IMG/VR virus record: IMGVR_UViG_3300028490_000032
Location: 1-21,823 of that record
DNA: 21,823 nucleotides
Reading direction: 5' to 3' (one strand)
Source: a virus
The notes under the pieces were generated by a model. The model made no database searches and was not told the DNA's origin. It saw nothing but the letters and a program-made list of their open reading frames with translations. The position numbers were made by a program, and so were the translations under genes. Below are positions 1 to 21,823 of the stretch, piece by piece; position 1 is the stretch's first letter, and each line of letters begins with the position of its first letter.

Positions 1-107
1 AGAAGACAATACGCATTTACAAACTAAGGCACAAGCCAAAGAACGTGGTATGACTATTCGTGGTTATATTGCTTATATAGTAAAGAAAGACAAACAGTTA
101 TTAATGA
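1..107 (+). repeat. Element A, left copy (direct repeat flanking the methyltransferase cassette)
   Basis: These 107 bases are identical to 19795-19901. The match stops at position 108, three codons before the end of the small RHH gene that the repeat encodes. Beyond that the nucleotides differ although the last residues stay alike (M-K-G-K here, M-R-G-K in the other copy). The repeat marks the upstream border of two different methyltransferase-nuclease cassettes. The window begins inside it, so its true left extent here is unknown. Confidence 0.95.
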
Positions 108-118
108 AAGGTAAGTAA
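2..118 (+). CDS. Small ribbon-helix-helix-like protein, 5' end cut off by the window edge
   Basis: This is the 3' part of a 44-residue gene that is complete at 19778-19912. The reading frame is open from base 2 and ends with TAA at 116-118, whose last A starts the methyltransferase ATG (TAATG). The visible protein reads as a short strand (NTHLQTK), a helix (AQAKERG) and a second helix (TIRGYIAYIVKKDK), the pattern of Arc/CopG-type RHH DNA-binding proteins. A transcriptional regulator of the downstream cassette is an inference from fold pattern, size and position. The first six residues lie outside the window. It could instead be an antitoxin-like or other small protein, since no function is proven by sequence. 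Confidence 0.6.
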   Translation, partial: EDNTHLQTKAQAKERGMTIRGYIAYIVKKDKQLLMKGK

Positions 119-1242
119 TGGAAGTTATAGAGGTAGATGTTTTTGAATTGGAAGCTGAAATTATCCAACGTGAAACATTAATAAAGAAGTATGATGCAGG
201 GCTTATAGCTATGTGGATAGACCAAGGTAAGGCACTAATAAATTTACACCACAAGTTAAATGGTAGTTTCGCTGAACTGATAGAAGACCCTACAAATACA
301 GTTATGGTTGAGGTGTGTGGTGCTGAACGACTAGAAAAGCATTTAAACAAGGCTTTAGCCCGTGGTACTATTTACAGATACATGGCTTTTGCGTACAGCC
401 CTAAATTAAGAGAAACACCACTAGACCAACTTATAGGGTTTGACCAGCGTTCCCTTGAGAAGATGGTATTTTTAGAAGACAAAGCTTGGGATGAAGTGAT
501 AGAACTAGGTAGCTATAAGGACTTCTTACAACTCTCCAAAGAACGCGAGAAGATAGATGCTATTGAACACGCTAAAACACTAGACTTGAGATACGATATA
601 GTTAATGGAGATAGTACAGTTGAAACATTAAATGCACCTACTGGCATTAAGTGTGTAATCACAGACCCACCTTACGGAATGGCATTTGTATCTAATAGAA
701 GAGAAGCTAGTGCTAAAGATGTTGGAATAGCAAATGATGAAGACATCTACACAGCAATAAAAGTAACAACAGATGTTTTTAACAACCTATACAGAAAGAT
801 GCAAAAAAATAGTAGCCTTTTTTGCTTCATTGGTTGGCGTGAAGAGCCTATGTTTCGTGAACTCATTGAGAGTTGTGGCTTCACTATAAAAAACAGTATC
901 ATTTGGGTAAAGAACAATCATGGAACTGGTGACCTAAAAGGAACGTTTGCCCCTAAGCATGAACGTATAATTTTTGCAACTAAAGGAACAGTTGAACTTT
1001 CACATAGACATACAGATGTACTAGAAGGTAGTGATACACGAACAGACCACCCAACAGCAAAGCCAGTGGACTTAATAAAACTTCTGATAGAAGATACTAC
1101 CCTCGCAGGTGATTTGGTTGTAGACCCTTTTGCAGGACATGGTTCAACTCTCATAGCAGGGAAAGAACTAAGCCGTAATATTTGGGGATGCGAATTAGAC
1201 CCGTATAATTATGCTGAAATAAAAAGGCACTTAGATGCATAG
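118..1242 (+). CDS. Beta-class DNA adenine methyltransferase (cassette 1)
   Basis: This 374-residue protein should transfer a methyl group from S-adenosylmethionine to a base in DNA. The catalytic motif DPPYG (residues 183-187) comes before the cofactor motif DPFAGHGST (about 336-344), with HPTAKP (311-316) just before it. This order defines the beta class of amino-methyltransferases. DPPY favours N6-adenine but does not exclude N4-cytosine. The first 155 or so residues form a separate helical domain with a segment (WIDQGKALINLHHKL) resembling DUF3102-type N-terminal regions seen in phage proteins, and may set target or partner specificity. The start overlaps the RHH stop and the end overlaps the next gene by 8 bases, so translation is coupled. 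The methyltransferase at 19909-21228 shares only the catalytic domain type. Paired with a nuclease it may be a restriction-modification system or may protect phage DNA. Confidence 0.88.
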   Translation: MEVIEVDVFELEAEIIQRETLIKKYDAGLIAMWIDQGKALINLHHKLNGSFAELIEDPTNTVMVEVCGAERLEKHLNKALARGTIYRYMAFAYSPKLRETPLDQLIGFDQRSLEKMVFLEDKAWDEVIELGSYKDFLQLSKEREKIDAIEHAKTLDLRYDIVNGDSTVETLNAPTGIKCVITDPPYGMAFVSNRREASAKDVGIANDEDIYTAIKVTTDVFNNLYRKMQKNSSLFCFIGWREEPMFRELIESCGFTIKNSIIWVKNNHGTGDLKGTFAPKHERIIFATKGTVELSHRHTDVLEGSDTRTDHPTAKPVDLIKLLIEDTTLAGDLVVDPFAGHGSTLIAGKELSRNIWGCELDPYNYAEIKRHLDA

Positions 1243-1708
1243 GGTTGCAGAAAGAAAGCACTTGCCACAAATAGAAAGAATACTTAATTTAATTAACGCT
1301 AAAAAAAATATAGCCCCAATTACTTTAAAGGAAAGCACCGAGCATGAAGATACTAAGTTGTCATTTGATGCAATAACTTCTTTAGGTGAACAAGTGTCAA
1401 TAAGAATTAGAGATATGAAATACTTCCCTAATTTTAAAGATGTAACAATAAGAGCTAAGGCTAGTAAAGGAGGTAAGACTGAAGTAGATAAGCTAAGAGA
1501 TGGACTAGGGGATAAATACTTCTACTGTTGGGAGGATGCATTTGGTATAAGACAATTCATCTACTATGATATTAATAGGTTAAGACCTTTCTTAGATGAA
1601 GGTAACTGGAAAGATAATAGTGATACAACTAGCTTTAGAACCTATTCACTTAGTACGCTTAAAAGATGTAATAGTCTTATAGCATTAACCAAGTCAGTCC
1701 AGACATAG
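1235..1708 (+). CDS. Putative PD-(D/E)XK-type nuclease, cassette 1 partner of the methyltransferase
   Basis: I do not recognise this 157-residue protein with certainty. Its central part, with acidic residues in TEHEDTKLSFDAI (about 35-47), a basic strand VSIRIRDMKY (54-63), VTIRAK (70-75), then TEVDKLRDGLGDKYFYCW (82-99), resembles phage proteins of the PD-(D/E)XK phosphodiesterase superfamily. Candidate metal ligands are D39, D45 and E83 with K86. The start has an AAAAAGG ribosome site 7 bases upstream and overlaps the methyltransferase end by 8 bases. The last two codons (ACA TAG) lie in repeat element B. The position matches that of the clearer PD-(D/E)XK protein at 21225-21713, although the two proteins show no obvious sequence similarity. 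A restriction endonuclease role is an inference from this pairing. Confidence 0.5.
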   Translation: MHRVAERKHLPQIERILNLINAKKNIAPITLKESTEHEDTKLSFDAITSLGEQVSIRIRDMKYFPNFKDVTIRAKASKGGKTEVDKLRDGLGDKYFYCWEDAFGIRQFIYYDINRLRPFLDEGNWKDNSDTTSFRTYSLSTLKRCNSLIALTKSVQT

Positions 1709-1812
1709 CGTTGCTCTTATTCTTCCGAAGGGATGCTAGAAGCATATCCAAACTAGGAATAACTGTCAAGGGTTTTTAACAATTGATTAAAAGTTATACA
1801 ACGCTGTATAAA
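1701..1812 (+). repeat. Element B, left copy (112-bp repeat closing the cassette)
   Basis: These 112 bases match 21712-21823 with three mismatches, all around 1778-1787. The element is non-coding apart from the last codons of the nuclease gene. It contains an odd palindrome CTTCCGAAG (1722-1730), a bulged hairpin (GGATGCT, loop AGA, AGCATATCC, 1731-1749), an AT-rich inverted repeat (TTTTAA...TTAAAA, about 1775-1791) and an 18-bp operator-like palindrome at 1794-1811. Its 5' AGCGTTG (1707-1713) is complementary to CAACGCT (1799-1805) near the 3' end. It probably combines a transcription end with the control region of the next operon, and it marks the downstream exchange border of the cassette. 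Confidence 0.9.
1794..1811. promoter_or_regulatory. Operator-like palindrome
   Basis: TTATACA-ACGC-TGTATAA is a perfect 7-bp inverted repeat around a 4-base spacer, about 11 bases upstream of a TATAAT -10 box. Size and position fit a dimeric repressor site. The RHH proteins encoded nearby are candidate binders, which is inference. The same palindrome occurs at 21805-21822. Confidence 0.55.
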
Positions 1813-1822
1813 AATTAAGCAG

Positions 1823-1828
1823 TATAAT
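1823..1828 (+). promoter_or_regulatory. Probable -10 box of the promoter for the SSB-like/zinc-finger operon
   Basis: The sequence is a perfect TATAAT 14 bases before the ATG at 1843. No good -35 hexamer is visible at the usual distance, and the operator-like palindrome occupies that place. AAAGGA (1830-1835) supplies the ribosome site for the first gene. Confidence 0.5.
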
Positions 1829-1842
1829 ATTAAAGGATATAA

Positions 1843-2025
1843 ATGAATAAGCCACTAAAAGTAAGAGCTGGTCATAACAAAGATATGTACTTCGCAGTAC
1901 GTGAACATAAAGCAAAGAAGTATAATAGAAACTTTACTTCTTTAGCTAGAACAGAGATTATACGCATCTTCTATAAATTAGATAATGCTATGAATTACGT
2001 TTTACAACAAAATAAAGGAAAATAG
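1843..2025 (+). CDS. Small basic protein, possibly ribbon-helix-helix
   Basis: This 60-residue lysine- and arginine-rich protein is the first gene after element B. Its middle reads as a strand (MYFAVREHKAKKY), a loop, and then a helix (FTSLARTEIIRIFYKLDNA), compatible with the RHH DNA-binding fold (strand-helix-helix, 45-60 residues). There is no other recognisable motif. It has a good ribosome site (AAAGGA, 7 bases upstream), a TATAAT box before it, and ends 1 base before the SSB-like gene, so the three genes to 2577 form one operon. A DNA-binding regulator is the likeliest reading. It is unrelated in sequence to the 44-residue RHH-like protein. Confidence 0.45.
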   Translation: MNKPLKVRAGHNKDMYFAVREHKAKKYNRNFTSLARTEIIRIFYKLDNAMNYVLQQNKGK

Positions 2026-2026
2026 A

Positions 2027-2317
2027 ATGACATTTAAGAACTTAGTACATACAACAACGTATGAGAAAAATGGCGAACAAAAGAAAAAGTATACAAACGT
2101 AGGAACTCTCTTCATTTATGATGATGGCAATATGGGTATCAAGCTAGACTCAATCCCTGTAAACTTTGATGGTAAGTTAGCTGTGTATGATAGAGATGAT
2201 AAACAGCAACGTCCAAGTCAGCAGACTTCACAGTATGCACAACAACCAGCACCTATTGGACAGCCACCAGCTCCAGCTCCAGTACTTGATCCAGCTTTGG
2301 ATAATCTCCCGTTCTAA
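2027..2317 (+). CDS. SSB-like single-stranded DNA-binding protein
   Basis: The 96-residue protein has two parts. Residues 1-58 are strand-rich (NLVHTTTYEKNGEQKKKY, NVGTLFIYDDGNMGIKLDSIPV, KLAVYDRD), as in small phage and plasmid proteins of compact beta fold. Residues 59-90 are a flexible Gln/Pro/Ala linker, and the protein ends in the acidic tip DPALDNLPF. That architecture (folded beta domain, disordered linker, acidic tail ending in Pro-Phe) is the hallmark of bacterial and phage SSB proteins, whose tip recruits partner proteins. The fold domain is shorter than a classical OB-fold SSB, so the family is not assigned with certainty. The stop and the next start overlap (TAATG). It would coat single strands for the ERF annealing protein and the resolvase. 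Confidence 0.6.
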   Translation: MTFKNLVHTTTYEKNGEQKKKYTNVGTLFIYDDGNMGIKLDSIPVNFDGKLAVYDRDDKQQRPSQQTSQYAQQPAPIGQPPAPAPVLDPALDNLPF

Positions 2318-2577
2318 TGAATAAGATTAAATACCGTCGCTGTAGTGTGTGTAACGAGAATAAACCTTTAGATGAAGATCACTATAAGCGTAATAAGAGA
2401 GCTGGCAAGAATACTAAGATAATGTATTTCACAAAGAGCTGTAGTATCTGTTTAAATAGACTTGCAGCACATAGAGCTAGAGAAGCTTATGCTATCAAGA
2501 CAACCGATGCTAAGATACACTTGCCTAAGCACTTGCTAGAGCGTGGGAAGATACATTACGAAGGACATACGTTTTAA
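2317..2577 (+). CDS. Small zinc-finger protein resembling the N-terminus of phage HNH endonucleases
   Basis: The 86-residue basic protein begins with CSVCNENKPLDEDHYKRN (C9, C12) and continues to CSICLNR (about C42, C45). These are two CxxC knuckles about 30 residues apart that would bind one zinc ion. The pattern C-x2-C-x3-KPL-...-C-x2-C is the usual front end of phage HNH endonucleases and some recombination-associated proteins. The HNH catalytic part is absent: after the second CxxC only a basic helical tail follows. It may be a free zinc-binding DNA protein or the remnant of an HNH gene. It overlaps the SSB-like stop by one base and closes the small operon. Confidence 0.5.
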   Translation: MNKIKYRRCSVCNENKPLDEDHYKRNKRAGKNTKIMYFTKSCSICLNRLAAHRAREAYAIKTTDAKIHLPKHLLERGKIHYEGHTF

Positions 2578-2578
2578 C

Positions 2579-2840
2579 TTTGGGAGTAAACCCAACTAAA
2601 AATCTCTCGAAAATCTCTCAGCATAACAGTTGAGTATCATTATATTGACTGATAGACTCGCATAGGATTGCACTCCTGAGTCTATTGGTGAGTGTTTGTC
2701 ACCTTGACACTAACTGGACGGGAGTTTGGCTATTGAGTTAGTAACACCGTAAAACAAAACAGCTTTAGAGGCTGGACAAATGCGTATTTAAACGCGAGAT
2801 AATTAGAGCCCTTGGGTGCAGTAGGTGGAAGCCCTACCAT
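2579..2840 (+). other. Gene-free stretch with many hairpins; candidate structured RNA
   Basis: Between the zinc-finger gene and the RusA gene lie about 270 bases without a convincing reading frame. Visible stems: TTGGG/CCCAA (2580-2595); a long stem at 2648-2689 (12 pairs with two G-U), enclosing AGGA/TCCT (2664-2677); GGTGA/TCACC (2687-2703), which competes with the foot of the previous stem; ACTAACT/AGTTAGT (2709-2742); GCGT/ACGC (2782-2795); GTAGG/CCTAC (2821-2837), just before the RusA ribosome site AGGAGA. AATCTCTC also occurs twice (2601-2608 and 2612-2619). I cannot match this to a known RNA family. It could be an untranslated leader, a small RNA or a packaging or replication site. Confidence 0.45.
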
Positions 2841-2851
2841 AGGAGATAGAA

Positions 2852-3214
2852 ATGATACAATTAAAATTAAAACTAAAAGGTATGCCAAGTCCAAGACCAA
2901 GAGTTACACGTCATGGAACTTATATGCCACAAGAATATTTAGAATATAAGAAATATCTACAAACGTATTTTAGCGTGTTTAAACCCTTCTCAATAGTACC
3001 ACTTAGGTTAGAGTTACTTTTCGTGTTTAAGACACCAAAGAGTAGTCGCAATAAGTACCCAATGTAACGAGGTGATGTTGATAACTATGCCAAGAGTGTA
3101 ATGGATGCTATGGAAGGTATATTATTTGAGAATGATACTCAGATTACAGAACTTAAAAGTAAGAAGATGTACGGTGATGATGATTTGATATTTATTACTT
3201 TGAAGGAAGTATGA
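2852..3214 (+). pseudogene. rusA: RusA-type Holliday junction resolvase interrupted by an in-frame stop
   Basis: Read through one TAA (3065-3067), this frame gives about 120 residues, the usual RusA length. The N-terminal half (KLKGMPSPRPRVTRHGTYMP..YLEYKKYL) and the second half (RGDVDNYAKSVMDAMEGILFENDTQI) match the family's order. The second half carries the catalytic Asp-x-Asp-Asn and Lys of the motif DxDNxxK. The stop sits just before that motif (KYPM-stop-RGDVDN), where a Lys or Gln codon is usual, so a single base change (AAA or CAA to TAA) would explain it. The 71-residue product that ends there lacks all catalytic residues, and no start codon is available for the second half alone. 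RusA resolves four-way junctions after recombination. Broken gene, sequencing error or readthrough cannot be told apart here. Confidence 0.75.
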
Positions 3215-3220
3215 TATAAT
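3212..3220 (+). promoter_or_regulatory. Extended -10 promoter for the lipoprotein/terminase operon
   Basis: TGA-TATAAT is an extended -10 element (TGn then a perfect TATAAT) lying over the stop codon of the broken resolvase and 23 bases before the ATG at 3244. GAAGGT upstream of that ATG is its ribosome site. No clear -35 is seen, which extended -10 promoters tolerate. It is the best candidate for starting the packaging and head genes. Confidence 0.55.
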
Positions 3221-3243
3221 ATGTAAAAATATGAAGGTATTAA

Positions 3244-3531
3244 ATGAAGATAGGACTATTAATATTAGCATTTCTATTCGTTGGGTGTGAAGAGAATAGC
3301 ACTACAATCACGAATGTTAATCAGGGTGATGGTGGTACATACATCAACAACAATGATGGGACGGTGACTTATACTTACACACAGTCGGAAGGCGATGCAT
3401 CTGACGGCACTACGGGTGAGTATGATCAGAGTGACGATGAAGTCGAATGCAAGAGTAAAGGTTACTTCTACTGCCCAATTACTAACACTTGTAATAACAC
3501 AGCCTTAAACGGTGGAAGCTGTACTAGATAA
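3244..3531 (+). CDS. Small lipoprotein
   Basis: The 95-residue product starts MKIGLLILAFLFVGC. This is a short basic tip, a hydrophobic stretch and a lipobox with Cys15, so it should be exported, lipid-modified and anchored in the envelope. After the cysteine comes a low-complexity Asn/Thr/Gly/Asp-rich region, then a C-terminal part with five cysteines (ECKSKGYFYCPITNTC..GSC) that could form disulfides in the periplasm or outside. No family is recognised. It is the first gene after a good promoter and overlaps the terminase small subunit start (TAATG). Phage lipoproteins often block re-infection by masking receptors, and a role in lysis is also conceivable. Neither is shown here. Confidence 0.7.
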   Translation: MKIGLLILAFLFVGCEENSTTITNVNQGDGGTYINNNDGTVTYTYTQSEGDASDGTTGEYDQSDDEVECKSKGYFYCPITNTCNNTALNGGSCTR

Positions 3532-3932
3532 TGGCACGCCCTAAACTGTACGATACAGAAGAAGAGTTTGAAGAAGTACTGAACGCTTATATCTCTGATT
3601 GTGAAGATAATACTAGAGAGATATATACTAAAGAAGGTGGGGTTGTAACTATTTCAGCACCTATACCACTCTCTATTGAAGGGCTATGTCATGCCTTACA
3701 GATGACTAGACAATCCCTATTAAACTATACAAAAGATGATAAGTTTTTTGACATAATAAAAAACGTGAAGCGTAGAATACTGCGTAATCAAGTAGAGATG
3801 GGACTTATGGGGATAACTGATAAGACTATGACAATCTTCTTACTAAAGAATAATCACGCTTATACAGATAAGACAGAAGTAGAACAAACTGTAATAACTC
3901 CAAAGGCACCAGTCATTGAAGTTGAACAGTAA
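3531..3932 (+). CDS. terS: Terminase small subunit
   Basis: The 133-residue protein begins ARPKLYDTEEEFEEVLNAYI and contains the helix-turn-helix-like stretch PLSIEGLCHALQMTRQSLLNYTKDDKFFDIIKN (about 47-80). This is the 'specific steps: regional genes, then HTH, then short helices' pattern of phage DNA-packaging small subunits. A central helical oligomerisation part (RRILRNQVEMGLMG) and the segment MTIFLLKNNHAYTDKTEVEQ near the end are also typical of the family. It recognises the packaging site on phage DNA and stimulates the large subunit. It directly precedes and overlaps the large-subunit gene by 17 bases, which supports the call. The start overlaps the lipoprotein stop (TAATG). Confidence 0.85.
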   Translation: MARPKLYDTEEEFEEVLNAYISDCEDNTREIYTKEGGVVTISAPIPLSIEGLCHALQMTRQSLLNYTKDDKFFDIIKNVKRRILRNQVEMGLMGITDKTMTIFLLKNNHAYTDKTEVEQTVITPKAPVIEVEQ

Positions 3933-5142
3933 GCAAGGTGAGTTCCTACTTTCCAAGGCTAAGAATACTGGCTTCGTAGCTGGGTTTGGTAGTGGCAAAT
4001 CATACGTTGCTACTCTCAAATGCATACAAAAGAAGCTAGAGAATCCCACACTAACAGTTGCTTACTATCTCCCTAACTATGGCTTAATACGCGATATTGC
4101 ATGGGATAAGTTCCCTATGTTACTACATGAAATGGGCTACACTTTCAGAATAAATAAATCAGACAAAGAGATTATCATCGATGGTGCTGGTAAGATTATC
4201 TTTAGAAGTATGGATAATCCCGATACTATTATTGGATATGAAACATTCTATAGCTTGATAGATGAGTGTGACATTCTACCAATGGATAAAATGGAGAACG
4301 CATATAACAAGATACTAGCTAGGAATAGACAGAAGCACCCAACTGGTGAGCCTAACAGATTAGATATCGTTGGTACTCCAGAAGGCTTCAAGTTCTTCTA
4401 TAAGCGTTATGTGAAAGAGTTCAATAAAGGCACTGACTTACTTGTGAGAGCATCTACATACAGCAATAAGCATCTACCTATTGACTACATTGATACACTC
4501 AAACAACAGTACCCATCTAACTTGATTGAAGCATACTTGAATGGACACTTCGTCAACCTAACAAGTGGTAACATCTATAGCTATTATGATAGAGCTAGGC
4601 ATCATAGTGGTAGGAAGATTAGAGATACTGACGTGCTACACATAGGTCAAGACTTCAACACAGGTGGTTGTGTGTCTATTGTATTCGTGATAGATGATGA
4701 TATACCTATTGCAGTTGATGAGGTAGTGAGTAAAGATACATTTACGGTGGTTACTAACTTACAAGCTAGATACCCTGAGCATACGATAGTTATCTATCCT
4801 GACGCTAGTGGTGCAAGTAACAAGACTTCAGCTCAACGTACAGACTTACAGATACTCAAAGATGGTGGCTATGTGATACGTGCTAAGGCTAAGAACCCAG
4901 CAGTGATGGATAGGATTAACTCAGCTAACTCTCTCTTTGACCATAACACCATAAAAGTGAATGAAGATAGCTGTCCTAGATTAGCTGAAGCACTTGAACA
5001 GCATTCATGGGACGAAAAGGGTGAGCCTGAGAAGTTTAACGGTGGTGGTACAGTTGATGACTTCACCGATGCAATGGGTTACTTCTTATTCTATAAGTTT
5101 GGTATAATTAGAGCAAGAACAATAATAAAGGCAGGAACATGA
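3916..5142 (+). CDS. terL: Terminase large subunit (packaging ATPase/nuclease)
   Basis: The 408-residue motor protein translocates phage DNA into the prohead and cuts it. Visible motifs: Walker A GFGSGKS (23-29), Walker B LIDECD with the catalytic Glu117 (114-119), the coupling motif GTPEG (153-157), then a C-terminal RNase H-like nuclease with Asp246 in IGQDF, Asp296 in YPDASG, and an acidic stretch DDFTDAMGYF near the end. No ATG is suitable. The likely start is TTG at 3916, inside the small-subunit gene, with AAAGG about 10 bases upstream. A second TTG at 3922 is also possible. The gene ends in an ATGA overlap with the portal gene. At 408 residues it is a compact but complete member. Confidence 0.93.
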   Translation: MKLNSKQGEFLLSKAKNTGFVAGFGSGKSYVATLKCIQKKLENPTLTVAYYLPNYGLIRDIAWDKFPMLLHEMGYTFRINKSDKEIIIDGAGKIIFRSMDNPDTIIGYETFYSLIDECDILPMDKMENAYNKILARNRQKHPTGEPNRLDIVGTPEGFKFFYKRYVKEFNKGTDLLVRASTYSNKHLPIDYIDTLKQQYPSNLIEAYLNGHFVNLTSGNIYSYYDRARHHSGRKIRDTDVLHIGQDFNTGGCVSIVFVIDDDIPIAVDEVVSKDTFTVVTNLQARYPEHTIVIYPDASGASNKTSAQRTDLQILKDGGYVIRAKAKNPAVMDRINSANSLFDHNTIKVNEDSCPRLAEALEQHSWDEKGEPEKFNGGGTVDDFTDAMGYFLFYKFGIIRARTIIKAGT

Positions 5143-6431
5143 CCAACGACAATGTAAAGTTTTTACACCCAATCTATGTAGCACAGCAGAAACGTGTTAC
5201 CTTATGTAACGCTATGTATGATGGCTATGATACAGCTAAGAAGTACTTACTGCAATCTACTAATGAGAATGAACAAGACTATGCTATACGTGTAGACTTA
5301 GCAACATATAACAACGTCATGGAGCGTATCATAACTGCTCAAGTTGGTATGGTGTATCGTAAAGAACTCATTTATGAAGATGTGCCTGAGAAGTATCTAG
5401 AATGGTTCACAGACATTAAGTTTGAGCAACACTTACAAGATGCAACTACACGTGCAGATGTAGATGGTAAAGGCTTGATAATGCTAGATATGCCTATTGC
5501 AGGTGGTGAACCTTACTTAGTACAGATTAAGCGTGAGAGTCTAATCAACTGGCGTTACAGTGATGGCAAGTTTACTATGGCTGTGATAGCTGAACAGTAC
5601 GCAGAGGAAGATGGCTTTAAGATTGAGTATAAGACTCAGTACAGACACTTAAAAGAAGACGGGAACATAAACATATGGAGAGAGGTAGAAGGTCAAGGCA
5701 TGACTATCGTTGAGAGTATCACTACTAGCTATGACTTCTTACCATTGTATCTAGCTGACTTAGGGACGCTTCCTCCTATGTATAACATCGCTGTAATGAC
5801 TAAGAACTTATTTAATTGTTCTGCTATGACTGCTAATGCTATACGCAAAGCTACTGATCCATCTCTCTTAACTGTAGGCTTAGGCTTAGATGAGAACAAC
5901 GAACTAAAGCTAGGTGTGAATAGTACTATCAATACCGACAATGAGAACGCTAGAGTTGAGTGGATAGAGTTAGATGGTGCATCGATACCAATAGCTAAGC
6001 TAGACTTAAAAGACCAGGAAACTACAATAGGTGAACGTGCATTGAATATGCAAGCACAGACACAAGATAAGAGTAATAAGACAGCAACACAAGTTAACAA
6101 AGAGAATAGTGAGTCTAATGCTAGACTCTCTGACATCTCTTCAGTAATGGAGTATATGGCTAACGATATCTACCAGGGCTTGATGCGTATGAAGTATAAC
6201 CAAGATGCTATTGGTAAGATCTGTTATGCACGTGACTTCAAAGATGAGGGTGTAGCGAATAACCTTATGCCTTCAATCAATCAAGCGTGGGTTAGTGGGC
6301 TTATCTCACATGAAACAGCACTTACAACACTTGTAGAGAAGGAACAGTTAGTCATAGATGATATAGAAGCCGAGATTAAACTAGCAGGAGAGGAGTTCAC
6401 CGTTGAAGAAGTACAAACTAAAACTAACTAA
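5139..6431 (+). CDS. Portal protein (DUF4055 type)
   Basis: The 430-residue protein forms the dodecameric ring through which DNA enters and leaves the head. Supporting features are its position right after the large terminase gene, its length, an N-terminal start with HPIYVAQQKRVTLCNAMYDG, and the C-terminal helical stretch GERALNMQAQTQDKSNKTATQV followed by a Glu/Asn/Ser-rich helix. That last stretch is the signature region of DUF4055 portal-like proteins. The start ATG overlaps the terminase stop (ATGA). The C-terminal 29 bases overlap the next small gene. I am sure of the portal role and less sure of the exact family. Confidence 0.85.
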   Translation: MTNDNVKFLHPIYVAQQKRVTLCNAMYDGYDTAKKYLLQSTNENEQDYAIRVDLATYNNVMERIITAQVGMVYRKELIYEDVPEKYLEWFTDIKFEQHLQDATTRADVDGKGLIMLDMPIAGGEPYLVQIKRESLINWRYSDGKFTMAVIAEQYAEEDGFKIEYKTQYRHLKEDGNINIWREVEGQGMTIVESITTSYDFLPLYLADLGTLPPMYNIAVMTKNLFNCSAMTANAIRKATDPSLLTVGLGLDENNELKLGVNSTINTDNENARVEWIELDGASIPIAKLDLKDQETTIGERALNMQAQTQDKSNKTATQVNKENSESNARLSDISSVMEYMANDIYQGLMRMKYNQDAIGKICYARDFKDEGVANNLMPSINQAWVSGLISHETALTTLVEKEQLVIDDIEAEIKLAGEEFTVEEVQTKTN

Positions 6432-6594
6432 ATCCCAAATAATTGATATATTAGAAGCTCTACTTAATGAAAGTGCCAAGGCTCATAGTGATATGCTAAT
6501 GTATAAAGGTATGAAAAAAGAGGAGTATTTTAAGCAAGACTTTGAAGATTATGAAAAGCTAATAAGGCTATTTAATGAAAAAATATCAGAGTGA
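6403..6594 (+). CDS. Small helical protein of unknown function in the head operon
   Basis: This 63-residue, lysine- and glutamate-rich protein (KLKLTKSQIIDILEALLNESAKAHSDMLMYKGMKKEEYF...) is predicted by composition to be almost all helix. No family is recognised. The start is a TTG with a strong ribosome site (AGGAGAGGAG, ending about 8 bases upstream). It overlaps the portal gene by 29 bases and the next head gene by 20 bases, so all three are translated together. The reading frame and the ribosome site make it a real gene. A chaperone or adaptor for portal or head assembly is only a guess from position. Confidence 0.6.
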   Translation: MKKYKLKLTKSQIIDILEALLNESAKAHSDMLMYKGMKKEEYFKQDFEDYEKLIRLFNEKISE

Positions 6595-8187: not shown

Positions 8188-8224
8188 AGTAATTCTTTCG
8201 GACAATAATATTTAAGGTGAGAAT

Positions 8225-8326
8225 GGAGTCCAATCATTCATACAAAAGCACCGATTTTAAATCGGACTCTTTAGATAACCTTAGAGGAGTGCAAAAGATG
8301 CACTCTCGGATTGGACTCCTCTAAAG
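8225..8326. other. Compact element with nested and mutually exclusive inverted repeats
   Basis: Outer arms GGAGTCCAATC (8225-8235) and GATTGGACTCC (8309-8319) are perfectly complementary over 11 bases. They enclose a palindrome CCGATTT-T-AAATCGG (8251-8265) and a hairpin GAGTGCA-aaaga-TGCACTC (8287-8305), giving a three-way junction. TTAGAGGAGT (8281-8290) can instead pair perfectly with ACTCCTCTAA (8315-8324), which uses part of the outer arm and part of the hairpin. CTTTAGA (8269-8275) can also pair with TCTAAAG (8320-8326). No T-run follows, so a simple terminator is unlikely. It lies between the antirepressor start and the scaffold promoter and may be a switchable RNA leader, a DNA-binding array or a miniature inverted-repeat element. 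The rest of 8206-8437 holds only promoters. Confidence 0.6.
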
Positions 8327-14507: not shown

Positions 14508-14509
14508 TC

Positions 14510-16491: not shown

Positions 16492-16509
16492 CATGAAAGG
16501 AATACTATA

Positions 16510-17601
16510 ATGGCAGTAAACAGTACAGCGTTAAGAGCTAATGTAAGGGCAGTATCTGACTTGTTTTTCAGTGGCTCACAAACAGTCACTAAAGGCGATG
16601 AAGTCATTTGGATACTAGACGAAACTTACGCTTTCAAAGTAACGGAAAAGTGTGCAGTATCTACTAACGCATCTCCATTTGTTAATCTACAAGCTGGTGA
16701 TGTATTTATCATCTACAAGCGTACAGAAGACGATATAACAGCTAAGAACGCTAAAGGCATATACATCTTTGACCGTGACACAGTAGTGGGTCTAGCTTAT
16801 CCACAAGAGGTAACACAAGATATAGTTATAGAGAATGATATCTATGCTAACAACTATAACTCAGTAGTCATTGAAGCAGATAAAACACCAACAGCAAAGA
16901 TAACAGTATCTAATATGCAACCAACTATAGGAGATATAATCAAGATAGATGGAAGCTCATCTTATGGTGTTAGCCCAGCTATCATAAATTCATGGAGATG
17001 GAAGAAAAATGGTGTTTCTGTTTCAACCTCCCCAAGCTTTACTTATAAAGTAGATAGAGTTGGTCAAGATGATATTACCTTAGTAGTCACAGACAATGGA
17101 GGACGTAAAGCCAATACACAAGTTGGTATTATGATTAAAGCTAAACCAGTAGTAGTTCCTCCTCCAGTTATTCCTCCAGTAATTCCTCCTGCTGTGGAAC
17201 AAGGTTGGAGGCAAGACGGAAAAGTCAATCCAAACATACAATTAAAAACACCAATATGGATAACCGTACTAGATATGACATCAAGCGAGAGTGGACAAGG
17301 AACGACTACCATTAAGTGTAGTTCCACATTCTATTGTCACTTCACCCACACACAAGGGGGTACACAACACGATATACATATAGGGCTATTCATAAATGGA
17401 GTTTTAATCTCCACTAATAATCGCTTCTTTGGAGTACAAACACAGACCAACAGCATGAGTATCGTTACAACACGTAATATGCGAATTAATCATGGTGATA
17501 GATTTGAAATAAAACTACTAGATAAACAAGGTAACTCAAACTATTATAATAGGGCGGGAACAAACAATTACCCACAAACTATAGAAATAGTACAATATTA
17601 A
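16510..17601 (+). CDS. Tail fibre/spike protein with PKD-like domain
   Basis: The 363-residue protein has three parts: an N-terminal domain (1-120) that probably attaches to the tail, a PKD/Ig-like domain (about 126-211, with IDGSSSYGVSPAIINSWRWKKNG and ITLVVTDNGGR), and a proline-rich spacer PPPVIPPVIPP. The spacer is followed by a C-terminal domain (229-363) with strands such as STFYCHFTHTQGGTQHDIHIGLFINGVLIS that most likely binds the receptor. AAAGGA precedes the start. PKD modules and Pro spacers are common in surface-exposed phage adhesins. The C-terminal domain is not recognised by me, as expected for a fast-evolving receptor-binding part. Confidence 0.62.
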   Translation: MAVNSTALRANVRAVSDLFFSGSQTVTKGDEVIWILDETYAFKVTEKCAVSTNASPFVNLQAGDVFIIYKRTEDDITAKNAKGIYIFDRDTVVGLAYPQEVTQDIVIENDIYANNYNSVVIEADKTPTAKITVSNMQPTIGDIIKIDGSSSYGVSPAIINSWRWKKNGVSVSTSPSFTYKVDRVGQDDITLVVTDNGGRKANTQVGIMIKAKPVVVPPPVIPPVIPPAVEQGWRQDGKVNPNIQLKTPIWITVLDMTSSESGQGTTTIKCSSTFYCHFTHTQGGTQHDIHIGLFINGVLISTNNRFFGVQTQTNSMSIVTTRNMRINHGDRFEIKLLDKQGNSNYYNRAGTNNYPQTIEIVQY

Positions 17602-17613
17602 AAGGATAATAAA

Positions 17614-18246
17614 ATGGCTAACATAACACAAACGATAACAAACTTTCCAACACCCCCCGACTCTTCAAACGATACACCGACAGAGTTCAACACTAAAGCC
17701 GATGCATTCGTAAACCACCAAGGCAACGTGTATACAACCGAGGTTAATACGTGGGCTACGCAGGCGAATGGGCTTAAAGATGACATGAATGTTATTAAAA
17801 CAGATATTGCCGGGATTGTCGCAACTATCCCAGCAGGGTCTATTAATGACGGACAAATATCAAACAAAAAAGTATGGAGTTCTGCTAAGACGAATAACAT
17901 ATTAAATCAAAAGCAAAACATCGACCCAAAGTTTGGGATAGAGAGTACCCAAGAGAGTACAGAATGGATAACCAAATTTCCAGATGGTACTTGTATGTTG
18001 TATGCTACTAGATTTACCACTCCAGCTACTGCTACGTTTAACTTCAACTACCCAGCTGATGCGTTCATACTCGAGCCATCTGTAAGCATAACTATTGTAA
18101 ACGGTACCTATGGCTATCACGGTATCACTCAGCACACCACCTCATCAAAAGACAAGATGGTAGCAATTAAATATAAGAGAAGTGACGGCAGTGCCTCAAG
18201 TGATGCCATCACAATAAACGTACACGCTATAGGACGCTGGAAATAA
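17614..18246 (+). CDS. Tail fibre protein
   Basis: The 210-residue protein starts NFPTPPDSSNDTPTEFNTKADAFVNH, the 'FPTPP...F..KADAF' N-terminal signature of many phage tail fibres. Next come a helical segment (VNTWATQANGLKDDMNVIKTDIAG), a hinge with ISNKKVWSSAKTNNIL, and a strand-rich tip with conserved ending INVHAIGRWK. The closing G-R-W is shared with fibre tips of other phages. It is the last gene of the long rightward operon and is followed by a hairpin terminator. It would trimerise and bind the host. It is short, so it may work with the 363-residue protein before it. Confidence 0.72.
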   Translation: MANITQTITNFPTPPDSSNDTPTEFNTKADAFVNHQGNVYTTEVNTWATQANGLKDDMNVIKTDIAGIVATIPAGSINDGQISNKKVWSSAKTNNILNQKQNIDPKFGIESTQESTEWITKFPDGTCMLYATRFTTPATATFNFNYPADAFILEPSVSITIVNGTYGYHGITQHTTSSKDKMVAIKYKRSDGSASSDAITINVHAIGRWK

Positions 18247-18258
18247 CCTATAGCTTTT
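18226..18258 (+). terminator. Rho-independent terminator of the late operon
   Basis: GCTATAGG (18226-18233) pairs perfectly with CCTATAGC (18247-18254), separated by a 13-base loop holding the fibre stop codon, and is followed by TTTT (18255-18258). The opposite strand has no T-run, so it acts rightward. It lies where two convergent operons meet, 1 base between their stops. Confidence 0.62.
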
Positions 18259-18808
18259 CTAGGTACTCAATCAAGCCGTTTACTGCATTAAGTGGTAAGT
18301 CTTTCAATGACTCCACTGCATAATGCTTCTTCAATCCCTCTCTATCTGCTTTCTTTAGAGATATGAGAGTGTTAATCTTCTTTAGTTGAGCTTCACTTAC
18401 TACCTCTTTCCTGACTTCAGCCACATGGTTAGAGTTATCCATACCATCGGCATCTACCGAGTCATCTATCAGAAACAACCCATTAAGTGCATATTTACGT
18501 GCATACGAACTTGTACCACCAGTTACTTGCGAAGCTTGCTGTCCTTTGAGTGAAAGCTCTTCTCTAGCATAAGCACTAGAATGCGTTATAAGGCTCATCT
18601 TCTCATCATACAATGAAACAGTCGCCTTGATGTAGTATCTATCTCCTATTAGCTCCAAGGCATCATTAATCACTAAAGAATACTGATGCTTAGATAGTAA
18701 TGGCTTCAATGCTTCAAGAATACTTTCTGCACTCCTATATTTATACTTACCAAAGGCATTTGTTTTATCCTTTGGAGCATTTAGACTTGTTTGTATATTA
18801 TGTAACAT
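18248..18808 (-). CDS. erf: ERF-family single-strand annealing protein
   Basis: The 186-residue protein shows the ERF pattern: N-terminal KYKYRSAESILEALKPLLSKHQYSLVIND and, at about 98-124, GTSSYARKYALNGLFLIDDSVDADGMD, the family's core signature (tyrosine-rich Y-A-R-K-Y-A-L followed by an acidic D-D-S motif). ERF proteins form rings, bind single-stranded DNA and anneal complementary strands, often circularising infecting phage genomes. Partners here could be the SSB-like protein and the RusA-type resolvase at the other side of the genome. It is the last gene of the leftward operon and overlaps the gene before it by 11 bases. It has AGAGGT as ribosome site. The C-terminal part is short, without an added domain. 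Confidence 0.85.
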   Translation of the reverse strand: MLHNIQTSLNAPKDKTNAFGKYKYRSAESILEALKPLLSKHQYSLVINDALELIGDRYYIKATVSLYDEKMSLITHSSAYAREELSLKGQQASQVTGGTSSYARKYALNGLFLIDDSVDADGMDNSNHVAEVRKEVVSEAQLKKINTLISLKKADREGLKKHYAVESLKDLPLNAVNGLIEYLEKL

Positions 18809-19055
18809 TATTTACCTCTCTATTAATTTTGGGGTGTACGGTTAATTGACTAATCTCTTTTATTATATCCCTCACCCTATTTACTGACAAGCTAAAAGTT
18901 CCTGCTATTTTTGTAAAGGTTTCTTCACCCTCTAGCTTCATTAAATATATAGTTATATCCCTATTACTTTTTCTTTTAGATAACACCTCAATATATTTAG
19001 ATTCATTCCCTTTTACGAATCTATCATATCTATCTTTTATTATTTCATATTTCAT
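18798..19055 (-). CDS. Small putative helix-turn-helix protein
   Basis: This is an 85-residue basic protein. Residues about 45-70 (EETFTKIAGTFSLSVNRVRDIIKEISQL) look like a helix-turn-helix: helix TKIAGTF, turn SLS, recognition-like helix VNRVRDIIKEI. The N-terminal half is charged and helical (KDRYDRFVKGNESKYIEVLSKRK). It is not similar to a known repressor, but the size and position next to the ERF gene make it a candidate regulator or DNA-binding recombination partner. The start overlaps the gene before it by 4 bases and the end overlaps the ERF start, so it is coupled to both. Confidence 0.5.
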   Translation of the reverse strand: MKYEIIKDRYDRFVKGNESKYIEVLSKRKSNRDITIYLMKLEGEETFTKIAGTFSLSVNRVRDIIKEISQLTVHPKINREVNNVT

Positions 19056-19258
19056 TTATATCTCCTTATCAATCCATTATATCTATTTGGTTCAGCCTTG
19101 TTATGTTTGTTCAAATGTGCTAAACTGTCATAGCCATATAATTTGGCTAGTTGTTCATCATACATCAAGCCCTCTTCTCCTATATTTCGGTTACTGTGTA
19201 TGATGACTTCGGGTTCCCAATCTTTATCCAGTAACCATTTTAGGTTATTATTAGTCAT
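19052..19258 (-). CDS. Small protein of unknown function in the leftward operon
   Basis: The 68-residue protein (NNNLKWLLDKDWEPEVIIHSNRNIGEEGLMYDEQLAKLYGYDSLAHLNKHNKAEPNRYNGLIRRYK) belongs to no family I recognise; a C-terminal segment (EQLAKLYGYDSLAHLNKHN) could be a short helix-turn-helix-like pair, similar to recognition modules that read 'A-x-L-Y-G-Y'. It overlaps both neighbours by 4 and 8 bases, and its length and consistent codon use support a real gene. Confidence 0.5.
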   Translation of the reverse strand: MTNNNLKWLLDKDWEPEVIIHSNRNIGEEGLMYDEQLAKLYGYDSLAHLNKHNKAEPNRYNGLIRRYK

Positions 19259-19400
19259 CTATCTGTACCTCCGGCAATTCATCTCTCATACTTTTAATCA
19301 TAGCTAGTTCACCACGTAAGTACCCTTGATACCATGTTGCTAGATCCTTAGCTGTATCACAACCGTCTGCCATTGCTAATTCCATTAATTCTGCATTCAT
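19251..19400 (-). CDS. Very small acidic protein of unknown function
   Basis: Forty-nine residues, starting ATG at 19398-19400 and ending TAA at 19251-19253. The sequence begins MNAELMELAMADGCDTAKDL and continues with a helical stretch around TWYQGYLRGELAMIKSMRDEL and an acidic end. It starts inside the stop of the signal-peptide gene before it (TAATG) with AGGAG 8 bases upstream, and overlaps the next start by 8 bases. It is too short for family assignment. The overlaps at both ends are the main evidence that it is translated. Confidence 0.5.
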   Translation of the reverse strand: MNAELMELAMADGCDTAKDLATWYQGYLRGELAMIKSMRDELPEVQIDD

Positions 19401-19651
19401 TATCTTAACTCCTCTATTTTACTTTCAATATTATCTATTCTAACTTGTATCTCATCTTCCATCTTAGGAGGACAGTCATATCTAGCATCTATCATGCTTT
19501 GTAGTGCCATATTCATGTGGGTTAGTTTCCTATCTATATTAGTCATATAGGTTGCTTTTTGTATGTGCTTATTAGAACTCTTTAATGAATACAGACACAT
19601 ATCTGCATTACCTACTGTTAGCATCATTGCTAAAATTATTATCTTTTTCAT
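19400..19651 (-). CDS. Small exported protein, first gene of the leftward operon
   Basis: The 83-residue product has a Sec signal, MKKIIILAMMLTVGNA, with likely cleavage after Ala16, and a Cys soon after (DMCLYSLK). The mature 67 residues are helical, with a C-terminal coiled-coil-like part (KMEDEIQVRIDNIESKIEELR) and a second Cys (YDCPPK). It should act in the periplasm. It has AAAGGA 6 bases upstream and is the first gene after the divergent control region, so it is probably expressed early. A role against superinfection or in lysis control is possible but not shown. Confidence 0.6.
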   Translation of the reverse strand: MKKIIILAMMLTVGNADMCLYSLKSSNKHIQKATYMTNIDRKLTHMNMALQSMIDARYDCPPKMEDEIQVRIDNIESKIEELR

Positions 19652-19777
19652 GTTATTCCTTTAATTGAAGATAGGTCATTGTAGCATTAGTAAACTTAAA
19701 GTATTGTTAAGCTATAGTTTAAGTTAAGTTAAGGTTTGATGTGATACAATACACTATCTTAAACGAAAGGAATATAT
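19652..19777. promoter_or_regulatory. Divergent promoter/operator region between the leftward operon and the cassette operon
   Basis: Rightward, TGA-TACAAT (extended -10, TACAAT at 19745-19750) lies 27 bases before the ATG at 19778, with AAAGGA as ribosome site (19766-19771). Leftward, TACAAT (complement of 19678-19683) lies 26 bases before the start at 19651. Between them AACTTAAA (19693-19700) and TTTAAGTT (19718-19725) form an 8-bp inverted repeat, and TAAGT is tandemly repeated (AAGTTAAGTTAAGG, 19721-19734). A regulator binding here could control both directions. The RHH protein encoded immediately to the right is the obvious candidate. Confidence 0.5.
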
Positions 19778-19912
19778 ATGAAGATGCTAGAAGTAGAAGA
19801 CAATACGCATTTACAAACTAAGGCACAAGCCAAAGAACGTGGTATGACTATTCGTGGTTATATTGCTTATATAGTAAAGAAAGACAAACAGTTATTAATG
19901 AGGGGGAAATGA
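19778..19912 (+). CDS. Small ribbon-helix-helix-like protein, complete copy
   Basis: The 44-residue protein starts MKMLEVEDNTHLQTK and continues AQAKERGMTIRGYIAYIVKKDKQLLMRGK. Read as strand-helix-helix this fits small RHH proteins of the Arc/CopG type, where the strand pair contacts DNA and the helices dimerise. It is the first gene after a good ribosome site (AAAGGA, 6 bases upstream) and a likely extended -10 promoter. Its stop overlaps the methyltransferase start (ATGA). The gene is shared by both cassettes, so it is probably part of the backbone and could regulate whichever methyltransferase follows. Cassette-controlling small DNA-binding proteins are known in restriction-modification systems (C proteins), but those are of helix-turn-helix type. 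Confidence 0.62.
   Translation: MKMLEVEDNTHLQTKAQAKERGMTIRGYIAYIVKKDKQLLMRGK
19795..19901 (+). repeat. Element A, right copy
   Basis: Identical over 107 bases to window positions 1-107. The match covers RHH codons from about 6 to 41 and ends at the ATG A of the fourth-last codon region. The sequence before 19795 cannot be compared because the other copy is cut by the window edge. Confidence 0.95.
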
Positions 19913-21228
19913 TGATATTGGAAATAAACGAAGTATTTGAAAAGCTGATACCAAAACTAAAAGAGGAAGAGTTCCTACAATTAGAAGAAAGCATTAAAGA
20001 TGAGGGATGTAGAGACCCTATAGTGGTATGGAATGGCACAATCATAGATGGACATAATCGTTATTCTATATGTACGTTGCATGATATACCATTTAACACA
20101 GTAGAACGCCATTTTAACAATGAAACAGAGGTTAAAGAATGGATGTATGCTAACCAACTAGGAAAGCGTAATATAACCCCAGACGTTGCAAGTGCATTAA
20201 GAGGTAAATTATACAAGAGTCGTAAGCTGTCGCATAGTTCAGAGGGTAAATTGAACCATCAAAATGAGGGTTCAAAGACAACAGCACAGCAAGTAGCAGA
20301 AGAAACTGGAGTGTCAAAAGCAACAGTAGAACGTGACGCTAAATATGATGACGCTTTGTGTGCCATTGAAGAAGCGAATGAAGAGCTATATACTCAGATA
20401 TATAACAATGAAGTAAAGCTAACTAAAGCAGAAGTAACCAACTTAGGTAAAAAAGATGCAGACGTTATACAGAATGTCGGTGACCGTATCTTAAACAAAG
20501 AAGCTGGTAGTGTTAAACAAGCCTACAAGATAATAGAACAAGAAGAACGGGCAGAAGTAGTAGCACAAGCTCCAGCAAAAGAAGATAAATCATTACTTCT
20601 AGGTTCTGCACCAGATATGCTAAAAACATTAGCAGATAATAGCGTGGACTTAGTATTGACTGACCCACCTTATGGAGTAGATTATACAGATACTAGAGAT
20701 AGTTTCAACCCAGATTACTTAGATGGTAAAGATTATGCTTTAAAGCTATTAGATGATACTTGTAGGGAACTTGTTAGGGTAGTGAAGCCAGATGCCCACC
20801 TTTACTTCTTTTTTGCTATGTGGAACGTTACAGAAACAAAAGAGATAATAGGCAAGTATTTTGATATTCATCCTATACCATTAATTTGGGCAAAGAATAA
20901 TCATACACTATGTGATTTTGATAAAAGATACGCTCCTATGTACGAGCCTATATGGTTCTGTTCTTCTAAAGGTAGAAGCCTAAATGAAAAGTGTTCTAGG
21001 GATGTTCTTAGCTTTGATACACCTAGAAATAAAGTTCACCAAGCACAAAAGCCAAAAGAGTTGTTGAAGTATCTTATAGGTAATTCAACCATAGAGGGGG
21101 AAACTGTACTAGATTGTTTCGCTGGTTCTGGTAGTACTTTACTTTCAGCTAAAGAAATGAATAGAAAGTATATAGGCATTGAGTTTGATGAAGATATATA
21201 TAAGATAGCACTTGAGGCTATACTATGA
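19909..21228 (+). CDS. ParB-like domain fused to a beta-class DNA methyltransferase (cassette 2)
   Basis: The 439-residue protein is modular. Residues 1-75 are a ParB/sulfiredoxin-like domain (KDEGCRDPIVVWNGTIIDGHNRY, with the family motif DGHNR at 47-51). Residues about 124-146 form a helix-turn-helix (TTAQQVAEETGVSKATVERD). The C-terminal 210 residues are the methyltransferase: DPPYG (252-256), HQAQKP (377-382) and DCFAGSGST (402-410). Motif order puts it in the beta class, probably N6-adenine. Such ParB-methyltransferase fusions occur in phages and mobile elements. It shares the catalytic layout, and a strand IW-x-KNNH, with the cassette 1 enzyme, but not the N-terminal domain. It overlaps the RHH gene by 4 bases and the nuclease gene by 4. 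Confidence 0.9.
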   Translation: MMILEINEVFEKLIPKLKEEEFLQLEESIKDEGCRDPIVVWNGTIIDGHNRYSICTLHDIPFNTVERHFNNETEVKEWMYANQLGKRNITPDVASALRGKLYKSRKLSHSSEGKLNHQNEGSKTTAQQVAEETGVSKATVERDAKYDDALCAIEEANEELYTQIYNNEVKLTKAEVTNLGKKDADVIQNVGDRILNKEAGSVKQAYKIIEQEERAEVVAQAPAKEDKSLLLGSAPDMLKTLADNSVDLVLTDPPYGVDYTDTRDSFNPDYLDGKDYALKLLDDTCRELVRVVKPDAHLYFFFAMWNVTETKEIIGKYFDIHPIPLIWAKNNHTLCDFDKRYAPMYEPIWFCSSKGRSLNEKCSRDVLSFDTPRNKVHQAQKPKELLKYLIGNSTIEGETVLDCFAGSGSTLLSAKEMNRKYIGIEFDEDIYKIALEAIL

Positions 21229-21713
21229 TACCTTTTGAAGAACTAACTACTACACAAAAGGGTACAGTGGGTGAGGACATTGTAAAGAGTTATCTAGCTT
21301 CTAAAGGTTGGATAATATACGATACTAATTATAAAGGAGCACATCCTTTTGACTTCATGTATGCCTCTGCTGATAAGCAAAAGATATTCTTAGCAGATGT
21401 TAAAACAAAGAAACGCTTTGACTTTAGAAAAAAAGGGCTTCATGTAACTGGCATAGACACTAGACACTTTAAACAGTATCAGCACTTACAGAATGAATAT
21501 AATAATGATTTCGTTCTTTTCTTTGTAGATGAATTAGAAGGGAGTGTGTACTGTAATCTAATATCTAATTTAGAACTAGCTTCCTATGAGGTGACAGATA
21601 AAAGAAGTACAAAGACTATATTTAATTTAGATGATATGATGGAGGTATGTAAGCTTACAAGTAATGAAATAGATATACTTAATAGACTATCAAGTGGTAA
21701 CCATGAGTACTAG
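21225..21713 (+). CDS. PD-(D/E)XK nuclease, cassette 2 partner of the methyltransferase
   Basis: The 162-residue protein has a clear endonuclease fold signature: helix TTQKGTVGEDIVKSYLASKG with Glu17, strand-turn HPFDFMY with Asp43, strand KIFLADVKTKKR with Asp58 and Lys60 (D-x-K), and a following helix with Gln and Tyr (HFKQYQHLQNEY). This is the alpha-beta-beta-beta-alpha core of Holliday-junction-resolvase-like and restriction-type nucleases. Together with the methyltransferase it overlaps by 4 bases (ATGA), it could make a two-gene restriction-modification system. A recombination or repair nuclease is the alternative. The stop codon TAG borrows its last two bases from repeat element B. 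The remaining 60 residues (FFVDELEGSVYCNLISN...) are not assigned. Confidence 0.75.
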   Translation: MIPFEELTTTQKGTVGEDIVKSYLASKGWIIYDTNYKGAHPFDFMYASADKQKIFLADVKTKKRFDFRKKGLHVTGIDTRHFKQYQHLQNEYNNDFVLFFVDELEGSVYCNLISNLELASYEVTDKRSTKTIFNLDDMMEVCKLTSNEIDILNRLSSGNHEY

Positions 21714-21823
21714 ACATAGCGTTGCTCTTATTCTTCCGAAGGGATGCTAGAAGCATATCCAAACTAGGAATAACTGTCAAGGGTTTTAGACAATTGGTTA
21801 AAAGTTATACAACGCTGTATAAA
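21712..21823 (+). repeat. Element B, right copy (cut by the window end)
   Basis: Matches 1701-1812 with three mismatches (21788-21797 region). It includes the odd palindrome CTTCCGAAG, the bulged hairpin and the operator-like palindrome TTATACA-ACGC-TGTATAA (21805-21822). The window ends one base after that palindrome, just short of the place where the left copy runs into its -10 box. Confidence 0.9.

What the first reader, a model, noticed from the sequence alone, without database searches (positions are those of the whole stretch)
1..21823. Two different methyltransferase-nuclease cassettes framed by the same flanks at both ends of the window
Seen: 1-107 equals 19795-19901, and 1701-1812 matches 21712-21823 with three mismatches. 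Between the flanks lie two different gene pairs, 118-1708 and 19909-21713, each a beta-class DNA methyltransferase overlapping a probable PD-(D/E)XK nuclease. The methyltransferases differ in their N-terminal domain (DUF3102-like helical versus ParB plus helix-turn-helix), and the nucleases are unrelated in sequence. The junctions are precise: just before the RHH gene's last three codons, and at the nuclease stop codon. Known: phages carry defensive and anti-restriction methyltransferases. Inference: one locus in a circular or permuted genome of about 20 kb carries interchangeable modification/restriction cassettes, and the assembly holds two alleles. This would be a modular exchange locus using an RHH gene and a 112-bp element as anchors.
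Basis: partly seen in the sequence, partly recalled or inferred. Interest (0 to 1): 0.85.

Follow-up and report, generated by a model that had tools for sequence, protein, structure and literature searches.

The report
Swappable phage methylase-nuclease cassettes
A small, probably circularly assembled phage genome seems to exist with two different DNA-methylase-plus-nuclease gene pairs at the same spot, and comparison with about 30 other viral cassettes shows that these pairs are built from parts phages exchange, like interchangeable restriction kits.

Summary
Positions 1-107 equal 19795-19901, and 1701-1812 match 21712-21823 with three mismatches. Between these flanks lie two unrelated methyltransferase+small-ORF pairs. 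The window is a whole IMG/VR record, and both repeats are cut by the contig ends. The "112-bp element" therefore has no outer border; it is simply the start of shared backbone. The best reading is one ~20-kb unit with two alleles, read once round. No reads were available to prove it.

The cassettes belong to a widespread viral module. Of 80 viral loci with the same ParB-HTH N-terminus, all 30 fused to a methyltransferase and with room downstream were followed within 60 nt by a 120-230-aa ORF. The methyltransferase half comes from three superfamilies and the small ORF from at least five families. N2's family carries PD-(D/E)XK residues; N1's lacks the canonical lysine. ORF type follows the methyltransferase half, not the N-terminus, and identity drops mark exchange at module boundaries.

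I propose a compact restriction-modification-like weapon whose parts are recombined. ParB-methyltransferase fusions were known; I found no description of the nuclease partner or the shuffling, but the key paper (Iyer 2013) was not held.

The parts
1..107 (+). Left flank copy 1: 3' part of the 44-aa RHH-like ORF, cut by the contig start
   Evidence: 100% identical to 19795-19901
118..1242 (+). MT1: beta-class N6/N4 DNA methyltransferase, 374 aa; N-terminal ~150 aa of unidentified family
   Evidence: Pfam N6_N4_Mtase 3.1e-31; C-terminal half 56% identical to L008
1235..1708 (+). N1: 157-aa ORF overlapping MT1; nuclease-slot protein, PD-(D/E)XK-like fold suspected, canonical D/E-x-K not found
   Evidence: Family alignment A5: invariant D39, D45, R57, R59, T82-E83, K86; weak profile match to a PD-(D/E)XK-type family; 38% identical to the ORF after the L008 methyltransferase
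1701..1812 (+). Right flank copy 1: end of N1 and intergenic start of shared backbone
   Evidence: 97% identical to 21712-21823
1813..19794 (.). Single-copy phage backbone: SSB-like, RusA remnant, TerS, TerL, portal, head, connectors, tail, ERF
   Evidence: Pfam and PHROG matches
3531..5142 (+). Terminase small and large subunits, about 1.8 kb after the cassette
   Evidence: GP3_package 4.6e-18; Terminase_6N 3.6e-15
19778..19912 (+). Complete 44-aa RHH-like ORF, stop overlapping MT2's start (ATGA)
   Evidence: Sequence; no confident family match
19795..19901 (+). Left flank copy 2
   Evidence: 100% identical to 1-107
19909..21228 (+). MT2: ParB-HTH N-terminus fused to a beta-class N6/N4 methyltransferase, 439 aa
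   Evidence: N6_N4_Mtase 7.1e-32; PHROG ParB families; N-terminus matches over 500 viral stretches
21225..21713 (+). N2: 162-aa PD-(D/E)XK nuclease-like protein
   Evidence: Invariant E17, D43, D58-x-K60 in alignment A4; UPF0102 0.0022; family profile's best PDB matches are EcoRV, E 0.01
21712..21823 (+). Right flank copy 2, cut by the contig end
   Evidence: 97% identical to 1701-1812

Best explanation
The record is one small phage genome (about 19.8-20.0 kb per unit) assembled slightly more than once round, so the one variable locus appears twice with two alleles. Each allele is a two-gene, overlapping cassette: a methyltransferase with its own N-terminal extension (ParB-HTH in allele B, an unidentified domain in allele A), followed by a small nuclease-slot protein. 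Proposed mechanism (inferred): the methyltransferase marks adenine or cytosine N4 in the phage DNA after entry, the small protein cuts DNA lacking the mark (rival phage, or host DNA), and the two together work as a compact restriction-modification-like weapon and shield. Alleles are exchanged by ordinary homologous recombination in the conserved flanks (ERF and SSB-like genes are present), not by a site-specific element. In the wider family, recombination also swaps parts at the HTH/methyltransferase linker and the methyltransferase/nuclease junction. Shown: repeats, gene layout, wide occurrence of the layout, module shuffling, linkage of small-ORF type to the methyltransferase half. Inferred: allelism, circular unit, cutting activity, weapon role.
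For: Repeats and their truncation at both contig ends. The backbone genes between them are single copy, with a full terminase-to-tail set. Divergence starts within a conserved gene end (KGK/RGK-stop). L008 carries MT1's methyltransferase half (56%) and an N1 relative (38%) behind a ParB-HTH N-terminus, so the two travel together. 30 of 30 ParB-methyltransferase fusions with room have an adjacent 120-230-aa ORF. ORF type follows methyltransferase identity: partial correlation 0.50 against -0.085 for the N-terminus; none of 2000 label permutations reached the simple methyltransferase correlation, 4 reached the N-terminal one. Identity steps: L008/L106 ~71% DNA to nt ~525, then ~45%; L098/L112 likewise; L102/L116 97-99% through the methyltransferase, then ~50%, with methyltransferase dS 0.10 but nuclease dS saturated. 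Different cassettes beside homologous flanks: L062 vs L080/L063 upstream, L096 vs L111 downstream. Purifying selection on a small ORF: L063/L080 dN/dS 0.23.
Against: No reads, so two fixed copies cannot be excluded. No lysis gene or polymerase was recognised, so completeness of a 20-kb unit is open. N1's family lacks the canonical catalytic lysine, and occurs without a neighbouring methyltransferase in two of five bacterial genomes (L122, L123), odd for a toxic restriction enzyme. The same nuclease families pair with unrelated methyltransferase superfamilies, unlike classical cognate pairs. In most pairs only one flank could be shown homologous. Structure models were too poor to use.
Confidence: 0.6

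Rival explanations
1. Two fixed copies: a larger linear genome carries both cassettes at separate loci with duplicated flanks, and the assembler stopped at the repeats.
For: Contig ends inside repeats are also expected for true repeats. The closest TerL relative lies on a 42-kb contig. No lysis or polymerase gene was recognised in the 20-kb unit.
Against: Needs a duplication with both flanks kept at 97-100% while the whole interior was replaced, and both outer borders hidden exactly by the contig ends. Backbone genes are single copy and form a coherent terminase-to-tail set.
Confidence: 0.15
2. Terminal-redundancy heterozygote: a headful-packaged molecule carries allele A at one end and allele B at the other after mixed infection, and the contig reflects such molecules.
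For: The contig equals one unit plus about 2 kb, with the variable locus at both ends.
Against: Ends fall just outside the variable region, which looks like an assembly effect rather than random headful ends. It would still imply two alleles in the population.
Confidence: 0.08
3. The small proteins are not restriction enzymes. The methyltransferases protect phage DNA from host restriction, and the downstream proteins act in packaging, recombination (resolvase-like) or as inactive DNA-binding or decoy subunits.
For: N1 lacks the canonical D/E-x-K and occurs alone in two bacterial genomes. N2's weak Pfam match is UPF0102 and its relative L106 weakly matches Hjc. ParB-methyltransferase fusions near terminase have been linked to packaging (PMC6536676).
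Against: 30/30 adjacency to the methyltransferase, co-variation with it, a type-0 family with clear D...D-x-K in the same slot; among the downstream ORFs of ten relatives four were DnaB and only one a terminase.
Confidence: 0.3
4. Assembly chimera joining two different phages that share flanks, with no biological exchange.
For: Metagenome-derived virus record; no reads to check.
Against: The flanks are 100% and 97% identical and the backbone is single copy; two populations sharing these flanks are already two alleles. Related viruses show the same kind of swap.
Confidence: 0.08

Closest known systems
Phage ParB-methyltransferase fusions / 'ParB-Tls locus' (PMC6536676, citing Iyer et al. 2013 NAR gkt573)
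   Same: N-terminal ParB fused to an m6A/m4C methyltransferase, in phages; in the window it lies upstream of the terminase genes.
   Different: The passages read describe the methyltransferases without a nuclease partner; here a small overlapping nuclease-slot ORF is present in every case with room. Of ten relatives tested (one downstream ORF each), four have DnaB and one terminase. Iyer 2013 was not held and could not be checked.
Type II restriction-modification systems, including phage-borne ones (Sau42I of phi42 and P1, cited in PMC6536676)
   Same: Adjacent methyltransferase and PD-(D/E)XK-type nuclease genes; the nuclease diverges faster than the methyltransferase.
   Different: ParB-HTH N-terminus, very small nuclease, and the same nuclease family paired with unrelated methyltransferase superfamilies; shared sequence specificity untested.
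Bce_0392 ParB-methylase (described in PMC5512222)
   Same: ParB domain fused to an adenine methylase.
   Different: There the ParB domain itself is reported to nick DNA non-specifically; here a separate downstream nuclease-like protein exists, and allele A has no ParB domain.
Type I and Type III specificity-part swapping (general knowledge)
   Same: Modular exchange of recognition and effector parts at one locus.
   Different: No S subunit or translocase, no inversion repeats, two small genes only.

Membership tests
Type II restriction-modification system | DNA methyltransferase with SAM-binding and catalytic motifs | tested here: met
   N6_N4_Mtase 3e-31 and 7e-32; DPPY and FxGxG in both
Type II restriction-modification system | Adjacent endonuclease with a recognisable catalytic core | tested here: inconclusive
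   N2: E...D...DxK invariant, EcoRV top PDB profile match at marginal E. N1: canonical D/E-x-K absent
Type II restriction-modification system | Both enzymes recognise the same site and the nuclease is blocked by the mark | not testable with these tools
   Needs biochemistry or methylome data; only co-variation was shown
PD-(D/E)XK nucleases | D-x(n)-D/E-x-K core in N2 | tested here: met
   D43 and D58-x-K60, with E17, invariant in four members
PD-(D/E)XK nucleases | D-x(n)-D/E-x-K core in N1 | tested here: not met
   D45 then RxR in all six members; fold-level alignment to type 0 only weak, E 0.0036, probability 9%. N1 is therefore not filed as a member
ParB-Tls locus | ParB-like gene or fusion with DNA-modifying genes next to the terminase large subunit | tested here: met
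   Window allele B only: ParB fusion, TerS/TerL about 1.8 kb after the locus if the unit is circular; 1 of 10 tested relatives had a terminase ORF downstream
Site-specific cassette exchange element | Discrete conserved anchor with two borders, or a dedicated recombinase | tested here: not met
   Flanks are truncated by the contig ends; 21-mer core absent elsewhere; no confident recombinase or integrase match

The most novel reading that the evidence does not exclude
A phage-borne plug-in restriction module in which reader (ParB-HTH), writer (any of three unrelated methyltransferase superfamilies) and cutter (at least five small nuclease families) are exchanged separately, so the cutter has no stable specificity of its own and takes it from the methyltransferase protein; different versions coexist as alleles in one phage population, as rival immune types.
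Probability: 0.3. Interest if true: 0.82.

Novelty: new variant of a known kind. Interest (0 to 1): 0.62.

Why it matters
Phage methyltransferases are usually filed as orphans. If a small hypervariable nuclease regularly sits behind the ParB-fused ones, many are in fact two-part systems that attack other DNA. A standing allele pair in one phage population would make it possible to test directly whether phages use exchangeable restriction types against each other, and the swaps across methyltransferase superfamilies raise the question of where the nuclease's specificity comes from.

Tried and rejected
N1 and N2 in GenBank phages and plasmids: none; in viral contigs by exact peptide words: none, although relatives surfaced through the MT1 and ParB searches. 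AlphaFold models of N1 and N2: pLDDT 42, unusable, so no fold search was run. Rfam on the window: nothing meaningful. The 112-bp stretch as a structured RNA: z -2.9 and -1.6, not pursued because it has no outer border. RHH as a general anchor: no relatives upstream of other cassettes. Direct homology of N1 and N2: none. A simple D-x(8-22)-D/E-x-K pattern count (28/30) is too permissive to count as evidence; only aligned families were used. PADLOC named only the methyltransferases.

Full report
WHAT IS IN THE SEQUENCE. The window is a complete IMG/VR record of 21,823 bases. The two repeats are real: 107/107 identical and 109/112 identical. They bracket two gene pairs in the same order. MT1 (118-1242) overlaps N1 (1235-1708); MT2 (19909-21228) overlaps N2 (21225-21713). 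Apart from the two flanks, the two ends (1-1830 and 19700-21823) share no exact DNA word longer than 11 bases. Both repeats are cut by the contig ends, so their lengths are not biological. On the left, divergence begins three codons before the end of the 44-aa ORF, but the protein end is kept (KGK-stop, RGK-stop): this suggests both cassettes came with the same upstream gene, which fits recombination between relatives rather than insertion of an element. On the right, N1's stop lies inside the shared stretch.

ONE LOCUS OR TWO. Between the repeats lies one single-copy phage gene set: SSB-like protein, RusA remnant, terminase, portal, scaffold, Gp13-like capsid, connectors and tail proteins, ERF annealing protein. 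A circular or circularly permuted genome of about 19.8 kb (allele A) or 20.0 kb (allele B), read once round with one allele taken at each end, explains everything with no extra event. Two fixed copies need a duplication, replacement of one whole interior, and outer borders hidden at both contig ends. I prefer alleles, but this is an inference. No lysis gene was recognised, and near relatives were not found.

WHAT THE CASSETTES ARE. Both methyltransferases are beta-order N6/N4 enzymes. MT2's N-terminus is ParB-HTH. MT1's N-terminus matches nothing confidently. N2's family has invariant E17, D43 and D58-x-K60; its profile's best PDB matches are EcoRV at E about 0.01, marginal alone but in the right place. 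N1's family keeps D39, D45, R57, R59, T-E-x-x-K and an FY block, with no canonical lysine; a weak profile alignment places its RIR where the type-0 family has D-x-K. I therefore call N1 a nuclease-slot protein, not a proven nuclease.

A WIDESPREAD LAYOUT. Searching viral contigs with the ParB-HTH N-terminus gave over 500 matches, 80 kept. Thirty are fused to a methyltransferase and have room downstream; all 30 are followed within 60 nt, usually overlapping, by a 120-230-aa ORF. These ORFs fall into several sequence families by all-against-all search. N1's family includes L008, L046, L050, L051, L096 and L097; N2's includes L098, L106, L110 and L111. The methyltransferase halves belong to N6_N4, MT-A70 or Dam. 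N1-type and N2-type ORFs each occur behind both N6_N4 and MT-A70. The archaeal virus Blf4 has a ParB-methyltransferase with an overlapping ORF of yet another kind.

SHUFFLING. Among pairs of cassettes, small-ORF type follows methyltransferase identity: 29 of 34 pairs at 45% or more share type. N-terminal identity has no independent effect: partial correlations 0.50 and -0.085 (pairs are not independent, so this is descriptive). DNA identity falls in steps at module borders: about nt 525 (HTH/methyltransferase linker) in L008/L106 and L098/L112, and at the methyltransferase/nuclease junction in L102/L116. In L102/L116 synonymous divergence is 0.10 in the methyltransferase but saturated in the nuclease, which mutation alone is very unlikely to give. 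Different cassettes sit beside homologous flanks in other related viruses, mostly shown on one side. The window is the cleanest case, with near-identical flanks on both sides.

HOW IT PROBABLY WORKS. Most likely a compact restriction-modification-like pair: mark own DNA, cut unmarked DNA, exchange versions by homologous recombination. Against a textbook Type II system stand N1's missing catalytic residue, two bacterial genomes with an N1-type gene and no neighbouring methyltransferase, and pairing across methyltransferase superfamilies. These would fit a nuclease that depends on the methyltransferase protein for recognition, which is the more novel reading and is untested.

KNOWN OR NEW. ParB-methyltransferase fusions in phages, and their clustering near terminase, are published (PMC6536676). 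A ParB-methylase with nicking activity is cited in PMC5512222. Phage-borne restriction-modification systems exist (Sau42I, P1; cited in PMC6536676). I found no account of the small overlapping ORF or of the three-way shuffling, but the central 2013 paper was not held, so novelty is provisional.

Noticed in passing
2852-3208: RusA-like resolvase reading frame interrupted by one in-frame TAA at 3065-3067; the frame continues with a RusA-like stretch (RGDVDNYAKSVMDAM). Pseudogene, error or recoding not resolved.
   Followed up: no
2578-2851: Non-coding stretch of about 270 bp; 2575-2720 folds better than shuffles (z -2.96) but matches no Rfam family.
   Followed up: partly
7522-8205: AntA/AntB antirepressor gene on the opposite strand inside the head gene cluster, hinting at a temperate ancestry although no integrase was recognised.
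   Followed up: no
21788-21823: The contig ends 25 bases after the last mismatch of the right flank, a possible trace of the assembler's word length.
   Followed up: no
L102:1749-3325 and L116:133-1697: Methyltransferase gene 97-99% identical in DNA while the adjacent nuclease protein is 46% identical: apparent nuclease-only replacement.
   Followed up: yes
L122:3851-4345 and L123:3365-3853: N1-type genes without a neighbouring ParB-methyltransferase in two bacterial genomes.
   Followed up: partly
L045, L049, L053, L066 and others: A second architecture: ParB-HTH ORF of about 320 aa without methyltransferase, followed by another ~300-aa ParB-like ORF, common among the 80 loci.
   Followed up: no
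L030 (PQ006095): ParB-HTH gene without methyltransferase, overlapped upstream by an ORF annotated as putative restriction endonuclease.
   Followed up: no
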